Assembly (NCBI GenBank): GCA_020201045.1
Contig: JAIVHP010000289.1
Location: 1-35,107, forward strand
Origin: Flavobacteriales bacterium
Lineage (GTDB): Bacteria > Bacteroidota > Bacteroidia > Flavobacteriales_D > Cryomorphaceae
DNA: 35,107 bases
Direction of reading: 5' to 3'
The notes under the pieces are model-generated. The model made no database searches, was not told where the DNA came from, and was given only the letters and a program-made list of their open reading frames with translations. Positions 2,512-10,839 of this stretch are shown here, one piece after another (positions within the stretch are counted from its first letter, which is position 1; each line of letters begins with the position of its first letter). The position numbers and the translations under genes were made by a program.

Positions 2512-3778
2512 TTCATATATCTTTGAATAGGTCCCAAAAGGTTATAGGACTGATTCCAATATATATGACCCCAGGCCCTTTGAAATAAATCGGAATTCCT
2601 GTTTATAAATGACATGCTACTTACGGATGTTTTATATGTTCCATTAAAGTGCGATACATTAATTCTTGCTAATCTATTTGTACTAACTACCCTTACCTCA
2701 TTGATAGTTTGATTGCTCCAGCTTACTGTAGCCTTTACTTTTTCTCCATTTATAATTAGATCTCTGGAGTATAGTGACTTTGCAATCGATCCTCTTCCAA
2801 TATGGACTATTATGAATGCTTTCCATATCAAATAAATCATCAATTTTTAGGGTGCCATTCGATTTTGTAATTTGGCTTGCCTTCCTATAAGCGTTTAATA
2901 ATTGCTTGAAATCTTCTTCTGAATTACCCGTGGTAGGATTTGCCAAAGTAGCACCGTCTGCTCCATTGACAGATGCTGTAACGTCTATTCCAAGAGCGGT
3001 TCCAAATTTTTCCAAATTTGTTACTTTACTACCTGTTATAAAATTTAATCCTTTAGATTTAGCTTCTAGACCAGAAGAGACACCTCCTATCGTCGCTCCA
3101 GAAAGTGCTCCAATACCACCTCCCTTTAAACCCGAAACGAGACCATCACCAAGACTCATATCATGCAACCAAGCATTTCCAGCGCTATTTATAAATCCAC
3201 CAGTAAACCCAGATGCACCCCCCTGAATAGCACCGTTAATGAACCCTAAACCACCTCCTAGCAGTAAAAACAAACTCCCCATCCGGATCCACATACACCA
3301 CCGGGTTATTCCCAATTCCCAAATAAGGATTGTGGAACTGCTCCGCAGGGTCGGGCGTAAACCAAACCCCTAATTGCGGATCATAGAAGCGAGAACCAAA
3401 GTCAAACATTTCAAGCCCCGTGCTTAAGCTGCTATCAAATTCGCCGGTCTGTAATTCCTTACTGGTATACTTATTCAGGTACTCATCAGAATTGCTGTTA
3501 AGCCCTGCAATGGTGAGGCCATAAGGATAGTAATCATTGATTTGTCGAAGCTTTCCGCGTTGATATTGCACCAGGAAGTTATCGAAGTTAACAGCCGCAT
3601 CACTACCATTACTCACATATGCGTGTAAGTACCCATCTTGCCCCACATCTAAGTCGTTTCTTATAAGAGTTTCCAGCGCGTTGGGGTTTTGAACTTTGGC
3701 GGCGCCTGAGTGAGTTCGACAGCCAGATCGGGCTCCTGATGTATTCGAAAAATGATATGTGATGCTCACTCCACTCAT
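2508..3778 (-). pseudogene. RHS-repeat-associated core tip plus C-terminal cargo domain, split by two apparent frameshifts and lacking the RHS head
   Basis: ORF 3236-3778 has the RHS core 'NDYYPYGLTIAG...YLNKYTSKELQTG...FDFGSRFYDPQLGVWFTPDPAEQFHNPYLGIGNNPVVYVDPDGEF'; the cargo continues in ORF 2698-3315 (LFLLLGGGLGFINGAIQGG...) and then ORF 2508-2843 (GRGSIAKSLYSRDLIINGEKV...). Confidence 0.75.
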
Positions 3779-3958
3779 AAACTGAGCTCAAGATAAAGAT
3801 ATTTTGGAAAACTGATCGTTGGTAACACAATGCAATTGCTAACAGATAATTCAATTCATCCCTTACAACTCGCAGCGATGTGGTGGGTTACAAAAATTCC
3901 ACTTTAGCGGGGTTTTCGCTTCGTTCGAATAAGCGCGTATTCTACAACTCTTGGAATT

Positions 3959-4426
3959 CTAATGCGGGTATATCTGCATTCCTTCCATTTCTGCATTTGG
4001 GGGATATGGAACTACAAAATTTAATTGCTCTAAATCTTCAATACTTAAGTCGTATCGTTTCAAAATCATATACTGGTTTGAGATAACTGACCATACCGAG
4101 TCTTCGTAGACTTGTGCGTCAAAAATGAAAACGGAAAGCGTGTCTGCTTCCAGTTCATTAATTGATTCGTTCCATGGATTTCTGTCGCGAACATAGAACT
4201 TTCTACCCGCCCCAAGTGCTATTAGGTCAGGGTCTTCATTAACTATACTTGTATCTGGATATTGGATCTCTGAAAACCCGTCGTATTTCAAAAAGTAGAT
4301 CGTTTCCGATGAATTATTTTCTATCGTAATAGTGTAAAACTTTCCACCAAGAAAATTTTCTTCACAGCCCGATAAAACCAGTATAGCACTAAACAAAATA
4401 AAGAAAATATTCTTCATTTTTTCCAA
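3959..4426 (-). CDS. Putative lipoprotein, paralog of the 4608-5084 product
   Basis: MKNIFFILFSAILVLSGCEENF signal; C-terminal 'DLSIEDLEQLNFVVPYPPNAEMEGMQIYPH' parallels the neighbour. Confidence 0.65.
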   Translation of the reverse strand: MEKMKNIFFILFSAILVLSGCEENFLGGKFYTITIENNSSETIYFLKYDGFSEIQYPDTSIVNEDPDLIALGAGRKFYVRDRNPWNESINELEADTLSVFIFDAQVYEDSVWSVISNQYMILKRYDLSIEDLEQLNFVVPYPPNAEMEGMQIYPH

Positions 4427-4607: not shown

Positions 4608-5084
4608 TCAGGGAATATAAATCTGCATTTCATTCATGGCTTCACTCGGCGGGTAAGGCACAAAAAAGTCAAGTGTTTCCAGGTCGCTCAAGGACAAGTC
4701 GTACCTGGTCAACACATTGTAGTCATTAATGATTTCTTGATCGCTATAATTTGCAAGGGTGTCTGGGTGAAATACGTATATCGATATCAGCCCTTCTGGT
4801 GTCGATTCGATCAACGCTGCTAACGATCCCGTTCCGTGATGATCATAATAAGCATTTCTACCAGGCGGTGTTTTTTGCATTGACCCCGTTACTATTTCAG
4901 TAAGCGCGGTATCGGGATAAAATGGCCCGTGGGTATAAGGTACAGCCGATTCTATATTGTGATCAGCATTATTTACAACATGTATTGTTTCTATGCGTGC
5001 AGGAAAATCTTCCTTGCAGCTATTGGATACCAAAACGAGGTATAAGCTCAGCACAAACATTATTTTCGAGGTTACTTTTATCAT
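4608..5084 (-). CDS. Putative lipoprotein, candidate immunity protein of the HEYGH RHS tip
   Basis: Lipoprotein signal ...LVSNSCKEDF; lies 8 bp downstream of the RHS stop; C-terminal 'DLSLSDLETLDFFVPYPPSEAMNEMQIYIP' shared with the 3959-4426 product. Confidence 0.65.
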   Translation of the reverse strand: MIKVTSKIMFVLSLYLVLVSNSCKEDFPARIETIHVVNNADHNIESAVPYTHGPFYPDTALTEIVTGSMQKTPPGRNAYYDHHGTGSLAALIESTPEGLISIYVFHPDTLANYSDQEIINDYNVLTRYDLSLSDLETLDFFVPYPPSEAMNEMQIYIP

Positions 5085-5092
5085 TTTTCCAT

Positions 5093-6991
5093 TTATTCGT
5101 CCATTAATCGCGGATATCTTCCTTTATAAAAATCCCAGTTTATTCCAAGTCGATTGAAATACCATCCAGAATAACTGTTCGCTTCACGTTCATACCATTT
5201 CTCATTATGGCCTGTACTTCCAGCACTGTTTAAGCTAAGAAACCCTGGAACAAAATATAATGGACCCCATGTCTGACTTTGTAGTGTATGACCGTATTCG
5301 TGCATAAAAAGCGGGTCTTGAAGGAGATGATCTTTAAAATCTCCCTGAATTTCATCACGTATACTAATATTAATATGGTTACCGATGCTAATACCCCACC
5401 TGTCTTCATTATTTTCTCCAGTAGAGAAGGTAACCCCACCGAAGTAATCAACCCGGTCTACACCGCCAAATGTATTTCTCATTTGACTAAACCCATGACC
5501 AATAGCAGACTGCGGAAGCTCCCAACTAAATCTGCTTATACCTTGCCATGTCTGTCCAAAAAAGTTTCTGTTTTCATCCAGATAAAAATTACCACCAAAC
5601 TGTTCCCATGTATTTCCAAGCCTACTCCAATCTCCAGACGCTATACCATGGACAGTATTCGCAACAGTGCCTATGGCTGTAGGCGCTGCGTATGCAAGTC
5701 CTGCAACTTTAATTGCAGTGCCCAATACAGGAACACCTAAACCTAAAGTAACACCTGTGGCTATCGTAGCTCCTGCCACAAAACCAGATCCGAAGGCTTT
5801 CAAACCATCACCGAAATTATTGATATCCCCATTTGATGCCTGAATTCCAAGATTGACACTGCCGAAAACAGCACCAGCAATTACTGGAATCATCCATGCA
5901 AACTCCCCATCCGGATCCACATACATCACCGGGTTATTCCCAATCCCCAAATAAGGATTGTGAAATTGCTCAGCAGGATCGGGCGTAAACCAAACGCCGA
6001 GTTGCGGGTCCCTTCGACACGCGCAAATTCTCCGCACCATCTGCTCAGGGCAGGCTGCAAAACGACTACCAAAGTCAAACCCCGTAAAGGTCACGCGGTT
6101 ATACGGTACGTCATCCACGTCAATGAATACGGCGTGACCTGACGGGGCAGGCATCTCCAGTCCTGTACTTAAACTGCTGTCAAACTCTCCGGTCTGTAAT
6201 TCCTTACTGGTATACTTATTCAGGTATTCATCAGAATTGCTGTTAAGACCCGCAATGGTGAGGCCGTACGCGATAGCCGGAGCGAAAGCGAAGGGTGAGC
6301 CGTAATCGTTTATTTGCCGGAGTTGTCCACGTTGATATTGCACCAGGAAATTATCGAAGTTCACGGCCGCATCGCTTCCATTACTTACCCATTCGACTGC
6401 TGACGCACAAAACATCGGCGCACGCTCAGGGCAAGCATAAGCCCCGACATGAAGCCGGGGTTCATGGCTGTAAGGGCTCGTTCCTGCGCCCAACAGCCAT
6501 AGAACATACAAATATCCGTCTGCACCCACATCCAAGTCGTTTCTAATGATGGTTTCCAACGCGTTGGGGTTTTCAACCTGGGCGGCGCCCGAGTGGGCCA
6601 CATCGAGATTCATATTCTGATCGTATAACATCCAAACCAGGTAGGCGTGGGGCTTGTCTACGTCGGTGGTGTCAAACTCAGTTGACAATAAGCTCATAAT
6701 GGAGTTGTTCAAGGTCTGATCCCCGCCAGATGCCATATTGATCAGTTGGCTTTCTCCCAAATTCAAAACGCTCGAGCCGCTGGCTGCCAGTGAAATCAAA
6801 ATTTCGTTGAGCAAAAAATCCATATTCTGATAGGTGGTGCCGGGCGCATCTTCTTCGTAGAAATACGACGTGCTTAGCGCTACCTTATCGCCCTTTTTGA
6901 CGGGCATTACGAGCGATGGGCCAATTTCGGTGCCATTGGCTGCCGCTATTGTTGTATAGCTTTTACTGTTGAATGTTTCATCTCCAATCAT
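5093..6991 (-). CDS. Headless RHS-core protein with C-terminal HEYGH (HExxH) metallopeptidase-like domain
   Basis: RHS core 'DPQLGVWFTPDPAEQFHNPYLGIGNNPVMYVDPDGEF' then 'DPLFMHEYGHTLQSQTWGPLYFVPG...HNEKWYEREANSYSGWYFNRLG'; lacks the long upstream RHS/YD-repeat region. Confidence 0.8.
   Translation of the reverse strand: MIGDETFNSKSYTTIAAANGTEIGPSLVMPVKKGDKVALSTSYFYEEDAPGTTYQNMDFLLNEILISLAASGSSVLNLGESQLINMASGGDQTLNNSIMSLLSTEFDTTDVDKPHAYLVWMLYDQNMNLDVAHSGAAQVENPNALETIIRNDLDVGADGYLYVLWLLGAGTSPYSHEPRLHVGAYACPERAPMFCASAVEWVSNGSDAAVNFDNFLVQYQRGQLRQINDYGSPFAFAPAIAYGLTIAGLNSNSDEYLNKYTSKELQTGEFDSSLSTGLEMPAPSGHAVFIDVDDVPYNRVTFTGFDFGSRFAACPEQMVRRICACRRDPQLGVWFTPDPAEQFHNPYLGIGNNPVMYVDPDGEFAWMIPVIAGAVFGSVNLGIQASNGDINNFGDGLKAFGSGFVAGATIATGVTLGLGVPVLGTAIKVAGLAYAAPTAIGTVANTVHGIASGDWSRLGNTWEQFGGNFYLDENRNFFGQTWQGISRFSWELPQSAIGHGFSQMRNTFGGVDRVDYFGGVTFSTGENNEDRWGISIGNHINISIRDEIQGDFKDHLLQDPLFMHEYGHTLQSQTWGPLYFVPGFLSLNSAGSTGHNEKWYEREANSYSGWYFNRLGINWDFYKGRYPRLMDE
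6011..6060. repeat. In-frame insert 4 in RHS core (net +45 bp versus the paralog)
   Basis: 'ccttcgacacgcgcaaattctccgcaccatctgctcagggcaggctgcaa' between gggtc and aacgactacc; the paralog has only 'ataga' here. Confidence 0.75.
6081..6152. repeat. In-frame insert 3 in RHS core: 72-bp palindromic element
   Basis: Absent from the paralog (gtcaaac|atttcaag versus gtcaaac|72 bp|atctccag); near-terminal inverted repeat ccccgtaaaggtcacgc / gcgtgacctgacgggg. Confidence 0.8.
6266..6302. repeat. In-frame insert 2 in RHS core (net +27 bp)
   Basis: gtacgcgatagccggagcgaaagcgaagggtgagccg replaces ataaggatag of the paralog. Confidence 0.65.
6389..6508. repeat. In-frame insert 1 in RHS core (net +111 bp), apparently composite
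   Basis: Encodes YVLWLLGAGTSPYSHEPRLHVGAYACPERAPMFCASAVEW in place of HAY in the paralog; includes gttcatggctgt...acagccatagaac inverted repeat. Confidence 0.75.
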
Positions 6992-7362
6992 CCGTAGAGA
7001 TTTAGTTTCAAATAGCGAAAATCTTTCTTATTCAACGTATACAGCGGCAATTCATGCACAACTGAAGTAGCCGCAATCAATGCGTCTGGTAATGAAAGAC
7101 GGTGTGAAAGGGCATATTGCGAGATCAGTTCTATTGCGAGTCCTGAAATACCCACATTAATCGGCAGACAATTTATTTTCTTAATATCGTTTTTGAGAAT
7201 TTCCAATTCACCTTTGTTTCTTGCACCGAACAATAATTCACCTGCGGTAACATCTGAAATGCAGATTTTTTTATCTCCAATAAGATTCATTTTCCGAAAT
7301 ACTGTTTCATTGCCTTTATACAGTTCTATCAATACATGGGTATCGCACAAAACTTTACTCAT
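6988..7362 (-). CDS. PIN-domain (VapC-like) toxin
   Basis: MSKVLCDTHVLIELYKGN...ISDVTAGELLFGARNK...LSHRLSLPDALIAATSVVHELPLYTLNKKDF: PIN motifs with acidic residues. Confidence 0.85.
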   Translation of the reverse strand: MSKVLCDTHVLIELYKGNETVFRKMNLIGDKKICISDVTAGELLFGARNKGELEILKNDIKKINCLPINVGISGLAIELISQYALSHRLSLPDALIAATSVVHELPLYTLNKKDFRYLKLNLYG

Positions 7363-7568
7363 GCTGCCTTCCAGGCTTCATTTCGTAAATGACCAGCATC
7401 AATTTCCCGATCCTTCCAAAGGCCGGTATGCAGGGTTAGTCCGTTGGAAGTTTCTTTAGAATTATCCCGTCTCGAATCAATTACTTCAACTTCGATTTTC
7501 AGGGATTTTAAAAAGTCAATAATCGACTTCAAGCGCGACTCAGATACTTTGCCTTTGAGCTTTAACAC
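7359..7568 (-). CDS. Putative antitoxin partner of the PIN toxin
   Basis: 69-aa ORF immediately upstream, with a 4-bp overlap with the PIN ORF; arrangement typical of VapBC-type modules. Confidence 0.65.
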   Translation of the reverse strand: MLKLKGKVSESRLKSIIDFLKSLKIEVEVIDSRRDNSKETSNGLTLHTGLWKDREIDAGHLRNEAWKAA

Positions 7569-8745: not shown

Positions 8746-10839
8746 CTATTCTCCTTGATCTCGTAGGTGATGTTTAGTTCTCTCTTTTCGGCTGCAAAAT
8801 TGCCAAAAATGGCGATGATGGCATTCCGTTTTCCCGATTGATTTCCGGGGTGGAGTTTTCCTTCAATGGCCGATTGGTCGGCGCCAAAAGGCGGGGCAGC
8901 TGAGCCGATGGTGATTACTTCTCGGTCGTATACCAGCGAGTCGACGATAAGATTCTCGCTTCCGCTAAACACGAAGGAAAAGGCGAGGGTGTCTGTTGCC
9001 GAAACGTCGCCCAGGTCTTCAATTTCAGAGGTGAACCGCATTTCGGCTGTGGCCGTATCTTCCGGTGCGCGCTGTACGGATACAATTTCGATCTTTCGCT
9101 CCAGGGCTGCCGATATTCCGTAAACGGCATCGGCTTCGTTGGGGTTGTCGGTAACGACATTGCTCGCCGTGTATTCCCCAAAGGGTATCGCGTTTAGCAA
9201 TAATTCGCCTCCGTTTTCGGCGGTGTTTTCCAAATAGGGAAGCAGCGCTCCGCGATCGTACTTGCGCAGGTAATTCTCCAGCGACGAAATTCGCCTCGAA
9301 GTGAGGTGAACATTGTAGTCGGTTTTGGCAAGCGGACTGGCAAATGTCCATGGCTTCTTCGGCCTGATCGCCCTGCGATACTTCGAGTCCTTCGCGGTAT
9401 TCGCGCTGGTACTCGGGCAAAAGATCCAGGTAGGCGTAGTAGGTTTCCAGATAGGTTTTGTCGGTTTCGTCATTTCGCGTTCGCGGGTCGGGTTCGTCGT
9501 TGTGGAAGTAGAGCACAACGGGCAGGTAAGTGTTGAGGTCTTCGAGGTTGGTGATTTCCGGAATGTCGTCGTCGATATCTTCGGGAGTCTGCTCAAAGCG
9601 CCAAATATCGTTGCAGCACCCCGCCGCACCAATTACCTGGTTTCCCAGTCGGTTGGTGGTGATAGTCCCCTTCGATAGCGCGTCGTTGAAGCTCCAGTAC
9701 AAGTCGTTTGCCGGCGAATTATAGGGCAGCTTCAGGTTTTCGGGTACCGAAAATTGCTTTTCGTCTTCTACTGCCTTAAACAAATCAAAACCGCCAAACC
9801 CGTGGTGCCAGTCAGAAGCGAAAACCAACTCTTCTTCGCGCGCATTCCAGAAGGGGGTGATTTCAGACCCTGGGCTATTGATGCGTTCACCGGCATTTAC
9901 AGGCTCGCGGTCTTCGCCGGAAAGGGGCAAATACCAAAGGTCTTCGCGGCCCATGCCACCGCTGCGGTTACTGCTAAAGAACAGCACGTCTTCGCCGCCT
10001 ATTTTACCGAATGCCGGGTGCGAATACCACGCCGAGTCGGGCGTATGTGGAAGGGTCAATTTCCGTTTTCCGTCCAGTGAAACTTCTATGTTGCGCTGTC
10101 CGTTTTTTTCGACAACCAGTGCTGTAAGCGTGCTATCTTCAGACAGGGCAATGCCCGAAGCACCGGCCCACGAAGCTGGTGCATTTCGCACATTGGCCAT
10201 TGCTGTATCGGCCAGAAACAGGCGCGGGCGGTATTCCGACTCTTCGGATGTTACCCTGCCTTTATCGTCGTATTCCCCGCGAAGGGATGTGAAAATCAAT
10301 TGACCGTCGGCGGTAAAAATCCCGGCAAACTCGCTGTTGTCGGTGTTTATCGGGTCGGGCAGTTTATCGAGTTCAAACGGTGCCCCAGCTTCCATCCACA
10401 ATTTGGCCAGGTCGCAGCTTCGGGTAGATTGTACGGCCTTTTGGTACCAATACGATTCGGGCTGGTCTTTGTACTGCTCGCGCACCCGCCGCCATATTTG
10501 TTTCGCGCGGGTGTAATTGCCCGATTGCTGATACATGGTGGCCAGCCATGCGCCGCTTTCGGGAAAAAGTTTGCCCCGCTCTTTTCGGTACACTTTCCAG
10601 TAATAGTAAGCCGACTTGCTGTAGTAGTGGTTTTCGCGCAGTGCTTCGGCGTATTTGAAGTTTACCAGTCCTTTTGTGCTGTCTATTTCCATGGCCTTGC
10701 CGTAATAGCGCAAGGCACCGTAGGGATCGTTGTCTTCCATGGCCCGGTCTCCCAGCAAAATCCAGTCCTGAAGGCGCTGCCCAAAGATATCTCCCGAAAG
10801 GGAAAGGGCTATAAGAACGATGGAAAGACGCAGTATCAT
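8742..10839 (-). pseudogene. TPR / PD40 (WD40-like) / OmpA-like / DUF1573-like protein (PorE-like), split by one apparent frameshift
   Basis: ORF 9025-10839 carries TPR and PD40 segments (LFFSSNRSGGMGREDLWYLPLSG; LVFASDWHHGFGGFDLFKA); the OmpA signature 'KTDYNVHLTSRRISSLENYL' and the C-terminus continue in ORF 8742-9632. Confidence 0.75.

What the first reader, a model, noticed from the sequence alone, without database searches (positions are those of the whole stretch)
6011..6508. Four multiple-of-3 insertions inside the RHS core, absent from the paralog 2.5 kb away
Aligning the RHS core of ORF 5093-6991 with that of ORF 3236-3778 by eye, flanking protein sequence is nearly identical (HSGAA.VNPNALET...VSNGSDAAVNFDNFLVQYQRG.LRQINDY...YGLTIAGLNSNSDEYLNKYTSKELQTGEFDSSLSTGLEM...FDFGSRF...DPQLGVWFTPDPAEQFHNPYLGIGNNPV). 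The larger copy has extra peptides at four points (net +37, +9, +24 and +15 aa). The smaller copy matches the usual RHS pattern (NDYYPYGLT, FGSRFYDPQLG), so the extra pieces look like insertions. All four keep the frame and avoid stops. This resembles, in principle, the Rickettsia palindromic elements that insert into coding sequence in frame. Inference: mobile or proliferating palindromic elements tolerated in, or selected within, RHS cores.
Basis: partly seen in the sequence, partly recalled or inferred. Interest (0 to 1): 0.88.

Follow-up and report, generated by a model that had tools for sequence, protein, structure and literature searches.

The report
Hairpin inserts in orphan RHS cores
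Short DNA pieces, several of them able to fold into hairpins, have been inserted again and again, always without breaking the reading frame, into spare 'orphan' copies of a bacterial competition-toxin gene, and most of them were found nowhere else in the genomes searched.

Summary
The RHS core of ORF 5093-6991 carries four extra blocks (net +111, +27, +72, +45 nt), all in frame. They are absent from the paralog 2.5 kb away, from a third paralog (C70) and from an end-to-end homolog in Cryomorpha ignava, so they are insertions. A fourth paralog (C368) carries inserts A and B but not C and D. Related Cryomorphaceae MAGs carry in-frame inserts at the same or other core sites. Every insert-bearing core that I could trace upstream is a 5'-truncated orphan RHS fragment.

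Inserts A and B are 98.6% identical between two cores whose flanks are 82% identical (P = 2e-7). The arm of C is 21/21 identical between genomes whose flank is 34/60. A hairpin shared by three sites has compensatory changes in 6 of 11 pairs. 'Palindromic' holds for A and C, not for B or D. Modules of A, B and C occurred essentially only in RHS cores (about 300 genomes for two of them, 8-12 for the others), unlike Rickettsia palindromic elements or REPs. The short D-type module is a dispersed REP-like repeat.

Most likely these are hairpin-type elements that accumulate in orphan RHS cores, spread through core homology, and keep the frame because the cassettes stay under selection. The mobility mechanism is inferred.

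The parts
5093..6991 (-). Orphan (5'-truncated) RHS core + C-terminal domain ORF, 632 aa, carrying inserts A-D
   Evidence: TIGR03696 Rhs_assc_core, interrupted; end-to-end homolog in C. ignava with about 290 further aa upstream; matches to a 2714-aa RHS protein begin only at residue 2129
6389..6502 (-). Insert A: hairpin HP1 + second hairpin + long-loop element 1 (net +37 aa)
   Evidence: alignment; DNA fold z -3.2; 112/114 identical copy in contig C368
6462..6503 (-). HP1 hairpin with loop GCAGGAACGA, shared with other insert sites in G005 and L103
   Evidence: alignment A2, 6 of 11 pairs with compensatory changes, covariance-model search
6438..6463 (-). Second hairpin of insert A (CCCCGGCTTCATGTCGGGG)
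   Evidence: sequence; found only in the two RHS copies among 12 genomes at up to 3 mismatches
6389..6435 (-). Long-loop element 1 (TGCCCTGAGC-loop-GTCGAATGG) closing insert A
6269..6301 (-). Insert B (net +9 aa), replaces YP of the conserved YYPYG
   Evidence: only the two RHS copies in 8 family genomes at up to 3 mismatches; not palindromic
6080..6151 (-). Insert C (+24 aa), inverted repeat CCCCGT-AGGTCACGC ... GCGTGACCT-ACGGGG
   Evidence: fold z -3.8; same site and same arms, different loop in G007 and L103
6011..6058 (-). Insert D (net +15 aa), long-loop element 1, replaces Y of YDPQLG
   Evidence: short-loop version at the same site in G005:C31 and L103
3236..3778 (-). Paralogous orphan RHS core without inserts (naturally empty sites)

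Best explanation
The four blocks are derived insertions of short, mostly hairpin-forming elements into an orphan RHS core cassette. The elements belong to a small pool shared by RHS cores of this family (Cryomorphaceae): a composite element (HP1 plus a second hairpin), a C-type inverted repeat, insert B, and a REP-like element 1. Shown: insertions, in frame, at recurrent sites, polymorphic among paralogs, near-identical across diverged flanks, hairpin stems maintained by paired changes, almost confined to RHS cores. Inferred: inserts pass from core to core during recombination between the many homologous cassettes. The hairpin block is transferred while the flanking mismatches revert to the recipient sequence, for example because large or hairpin loops in heteroduplex escape mismatch repair. 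Also inferred: insertions survive only when in frame because orphan cassettes are kept as readable reserves that can be fused to a full-length RHS gene, as shown for Salmonella (PMC3967940).
For: (1) Empty sites in window small, C70 and the C. ignava end-to-end homolog; A and B, but not C and D, in C368. (2) big vs C368: flanks 145/177 identical, inserts A+B 145/147, Fisher P = 2e-7, with sharp boundaries. (3) Site C: arm 21/21 identical vs 34/60 in the 60 bp upstream, window vs G007; loops differ. (4) Same sites reused: A by three element versions, C by three cores, D by two loop versions, E by two, Y/K by two. (5) HP1 at three sites: 6 of 11 pairs with double changes, none one-sided, slid controls 0-2 pairs. 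(6) RHS confinement: GCGCAGGAACGAGC..AGC in 4 places in 299 genomes, 3 of them RHS inserts; the C-arm in 2 places in 299 genomes, both RHS; B and the second hairpin of A only in RHS; the HP1 model finds only RHS copies in 0.72 Mb. (7) Insert-bearing cores are truncated orphans. (8) Flanking core codons between big and C368 change mostly at synonymous positions, 26 synonymous vs 9 non-synonymous.
Against: No recombination or mobility event was observed. HP1 compensatory changes rest on four distinct sequences, and replication template switching can produce such changes without selection (PMC8794818). B and D are not hairpins. Several inserts replace conserved RHS motif residues (YP, Y, NNP), so some cassettes may already be non-functional. 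Only 8 genomes of the family were available, several of them fragmented MAGs. The loop-escape step is drawn from general knowledge of recombination and was not tested.
Confidence: 0.5

Rival explanations
1. Transposase-mobilised REP/MITE elements (Y1/RAYT or a similar enzyme) insert de novo with a preference for RHS-core target sites; the frame is kept by selection afterwards.
For: Element 1 (CCTGCCCTGAGC-x-GTCGAAGG) is dispersed, also between genes, in other Bacteroidota and in unrelated contigs, and stands in RHS cores in both orientations. Y1 transposases exist in the genome. In-frame intragenic REPs and RPEs are known (PMC3733652, PMC2229807).
Against: HP1, B and C modules are essentially absent outside RHS cores. 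The own-genome Y1 genes (C131, C373) lie on other contigs. No target duplication is visible.
Confidence: 0.25
2. The hairpins arose locally by replication template switching and now move only with whole cassettes by gene transfer and duplication; they are neutral debris in decaying orphans.
For: Template switching creates and repairs hairpins (PMC8794818). All insert-bearing cores are truncated orphans, and one, G004:C4, has a stop codon.
Against: The same sequences occur at different sites and in different genomes. Inserts are far more alike than their flanks. All catalogued inserts keep frame.
Confidence: 0.15
3. The blocks are ancestral loops of this RHS core, lost in the short copies.
For: Sites C and A are occupied in more than one genus.
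Against: C. ignava homolog, two own paralogs and the long RHS genes in G031 and G071 all lack them. The pieces filling one site differ between genomes.
Confidence: 0.04
4. Assembly artefact: collapsed or chimeric RHS repeats.
For: RHS cores are multicopy, and several contigs end in them (G005:C31, G004:C49, C103).
Against: Insert A and B recur in an independent contig, related inserts recur in independent assemblies, and the frame is always kept.
Confidence: 0.03

Closest known systems
Rickettsia palindromic elements (RPE; Ogata et al. 2000, described in PMC2229807 and PMC3733652)
   Same: Short inverted-repeat elements inserted in frame inside open reading frames and tolerated
   Different: RPEs hit many unrelated genes and intergenic regions and are one sequence family; here several unrelated modules pile up in one gene domain, the RHS core
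GTAG/CGTC REPs and intragenic REPs (PMC3733652)
   Same: 20-40 bp stem-loops, dimers, occasional in-frame intragenic copies at the same site in related genes; element 1 behaves as a dispersed REP-like repeat
   Different: Not high-copy in the host; no GTAG tag; insert C has CGTC just before its stem, but its loop is far longer than the 4-5 bp of CGTC families
Orphan Rhs core-CT cassettes (Salmonella LT2, PMC3967940)
   Same: 5'-truncated core + C-terminal module, multicopy, with adjacent small genes
   Different: That paper describes cassette fusion by core homology; hairpin inserts in the core are not described in what I read
Bacterial MITEs with open reading frames (ERIC, NEMIS, YPAL; PMC2229807)
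   Same: Composite stem-loop elements fused in frame to genes
   Different: No terminal inverted repeat across the whole insert A, no target duplication seen, no genome-wide family

Membership tests
RHS repeat-associated core (TIGR03696) | Profile match to the core | tested here: met
   small copy 47.2 bits over cut-off 32.5; big copy 28.1 bits because inserts interrupt it
Orphan RHS cassette | N-terminal RHS part missing, core + CT retained | tested here: met
   matches start at residue 2129 of a 2714-aa RHS
Rickettsia palindromic element-like | In-frame insertion in an ORF with empty homologs | tested here: met
Rickettsia palindromic element-like | Palindromic element | tested here: inconclusive
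   A and C yes, B and D no
Rickettsia palindromic element-like | Dispersed over many unrelated genes of the genome | tested here: not met
REP (GTAG/CGTC) | Terminal tag + short stem-loop, multicopy in host genome | tested here: not met
   low copy in host; no matching tag except CGTC before the stem of C
REP with RAYT transposase | RAYT gene flanked by the same repeats | tested here: inconclusive
   two Y1 genes in the host, on C131 and C373; the HP1 model found no copy on those contigs; genome 87% complete
MITE | Target site duplication and terminal inverted repeats | tested here: not met
   junctions show replacement or clean insertion
Intron or translational bypass element | Removed from RNA or skipped in translation | not testable with these tools
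   no Rfam match; needs RNA or proteomics

The most novel reading that the evidence does not exclude
A class of recombination-driven hairpin elements that lives only inside RHS (polymorphic toxin) core cassettes. Hairpins spread from core to core at fixed sites by insert-only gene conversion, with stems kept paired by compensatory change, and thereby lengthen the core and mark the pool of reserve toxin cassettes.
Probability: 0.3. Interest if true: 0.8.

Novelty: new variant of a known kind. Interest (0 to 1): 0.62.

Why it matters
In-frame palindromic inserts are known from Rickettsia and REP-rich genomes but scattered over unrelated genes. Here they concentrate in one multicopy domain whose copies recombine. 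Filled, half-filled and empty versions stand side by side in one genome. That makes two open questions testable: how short palindromes spread without a visible transposase, and whether orphan RHS cassettes are under selection for readability. It also warns that RHS cores with such inserts fall below profile cut-offs and are under-annotated (28.1 vs 47.2 bits).

Tried and rejected
Plasmid similarity search with insert A: no match. Viral-contig scans: arm C and B absent; element 1 gave only unrelated contigs; no RHS relative. Rfam: nothing for the inserts. AlphaFold of the big ORF with a 7-sequence alignment: mean pLDDT 31, unusable, so surface-loop placement is untested. PDB sequence search: matches known RHS-fold chains over the core but does not place the inserts. 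PF05593 search of the own genome found nothing; TIGR03696 works. One NCBIfam call failed on coordinates. 'All four are palindromes' was rejected for B and D. 'Ancestral loops' was rejected. In one search a script also joined core flanks across inserts; that output is not used here (only the length-modulo-3 table is).

Full report
Setting. The window is contig C216 of a 3.6-Mb, 494-contig, 87%-complete genome. Genomes of the same family include Cryomorpha ignava (G004) and two Flavobacteriales MAGs (G005, G007), so the host is a Cryomorphaceae-type Flavobacteriales bacterium. The window also carries type IX secretion genes.

Check of the observation. Codon-exact alignment of the two window cores reproduces the four blocks and their net lengths (+111, +27, +72, +45 nt) at 6389-6502, 6269-6301, 6080-6151 and 6011-6058, all on the minus strand. 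The frame stays open through all four.

Insertions, not lost loops. The genome holds four cores of this type: window small and C70 with none, C368 with A and B only, window big with A-D. C. ignava contig C84 encodes a homolog of the whole big ORF, including the same C-terminal domain; within the core the only large gaps are the four blocks. The 2714- and 2920-aa RHS genes of G031 and G071 also lack them.

Relatives. In G005, G007, C. ignava, one G071 orphan and a soda-lake contig (L103, filed under Kiritimatiellae but with the same core), in-frame inserts stand at the same or other sites. Site A: EACPERGQGFCAEGIER (G005), EACPELVEW (L103). Site C: PAPSGHA-loop-CVTISG (G007, L103, partly G005:C31). 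Site D: GACPERSRR (G005:C31, L103). Site E (after KELQ): G005:C128 and L103. Between Y and K: TSAPLSAG/TSTSLSAG, which is element 1 in the other orientation. Site F (before INHYYPYG): G005:C139. Plus one further site in L103, one in C. ignava (replacing NNP, twice) and one in G071. All 19 catalogued occurrences are multiples of 3 (lengths taken). The translated search favours in-frame cases, but the searches list pieces in any frame and showed no frame change across an insert.

Inserts are younger than, or exchanged independently of, their flanks. Between big and C368, A and B are 145/147 identical while the flanks are 145/177 (P = 2e-7). Flank codon changes are mostly synonymous (26 synonymous, 9 not), which indicates purifying selection on the core. 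At site C the first 21 nt are identical between the window and G007 while the 60 nt upstream are 34/60 identical, and the loops differ.

Hairpins. DNA folding gives z = -3.2 (A), -3.8 (C), -2.9 (G007 C), -4.8 (L103 E), -2.7 (G005 F), but about 0 or positive for B, D and short element 1. The first hairpin of A, the F insert and both E inserts align without internal gaps. Of 11 pairs, 6 have changes on both sides and none is changed on one side only. Slid controls give 0-2 such pairs, and 1 of 500 shuffles reaches the covariation score. Only four distinct sequences are involved, so this is strong for its size but small; template switching is a non-selective alternative (PMC8794818).

Confinement. 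GCGCAGGAACGAGC..AGC occurs four times in 299 genomes of the order, three times in these inserts. GCCCCGTCAGGTCACGCC (up to 1 mismatch) occurs twice, both at site C. B and the second hairpin of A occur only in the two RHS copies. A covariance model of HP1 over 0.72 Mb of fetched DNA finds only the RHS copies below E = 1e-9. Element 1 differs: short forms lie between genes or in other ORFs of a few other genomes and of unrelated contigs.

Context. All insert-bearing cores that could be traced upstream are 5'-truncated orphans. Orphan cassettes are known to be fused to a main rhs gene by core homology in Salmonella (PMC3967940), which gives a reason to keep them in frame.

Mechanism. Shown: insertion, frame retention, site reuse, high insert identity over diverged flanks, covarying stem, RHS confinement of most modules. 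Inferred: insert-only transfer between cores during recombination, and selection on readability. Rivals are a transposase with RHS target preference and template-switch debris. Two Y1 transposases exist in the genome but not beside the cassettes. The structure model was unusable, so loop placement is untested.

Known kinds. The phenomenon works like Rickettsia palindromic elements and intragenic REPs (PMC2229807, PMC3733652), but the dispersal that defines them was tested and not met for HP1, B and C. It is therefore filed as a new variant of a known kind.

Noticed in passing
4608-5084 and 3959-4426 (-): Two lipoprotein-like genes beside the orphans, about 31% identical to each other; homologous genes lie in contig C368 (L016 2365-2865 and 1120-1518): a possible immunity or cassette-associated family.
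   Followed up: partly
6988-7362 and 7359-7568 (-): A PIN-domain toxin gene and a small partner overlap the start of the big RHS ORF, as if inserted where the N-terminal RHS part was lost.
   Followed up: no
L016 ~6186-6300, L015 ~10450-10560, window ~3709-3820: Three orphans share a leader of at least about 100 bp upstream of the core (ATGAGC..GTGAGCATCA.ATATCA), suggesting a common mobile cassette boundary.
   Followed up: no
L149 ~10480-10610: Tandem in-frame element-1 repeats (ACPEFAEWACPEFAEWACPEPVEWACPEPVEW) in an ORF of an unrelated high-GC contig.
   Followed up: no
L015 ~10334: The C70 orphan has a one-base frame break in the core but no insert.
   Followed up: no
L103 (SLAD01000129.1): The contig is labelled Kiritimatiellae but carries a Cryomorphaceae-type RHS core from the same sediment sample: probable misbinning, or gene transfer.
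   Followed up: no
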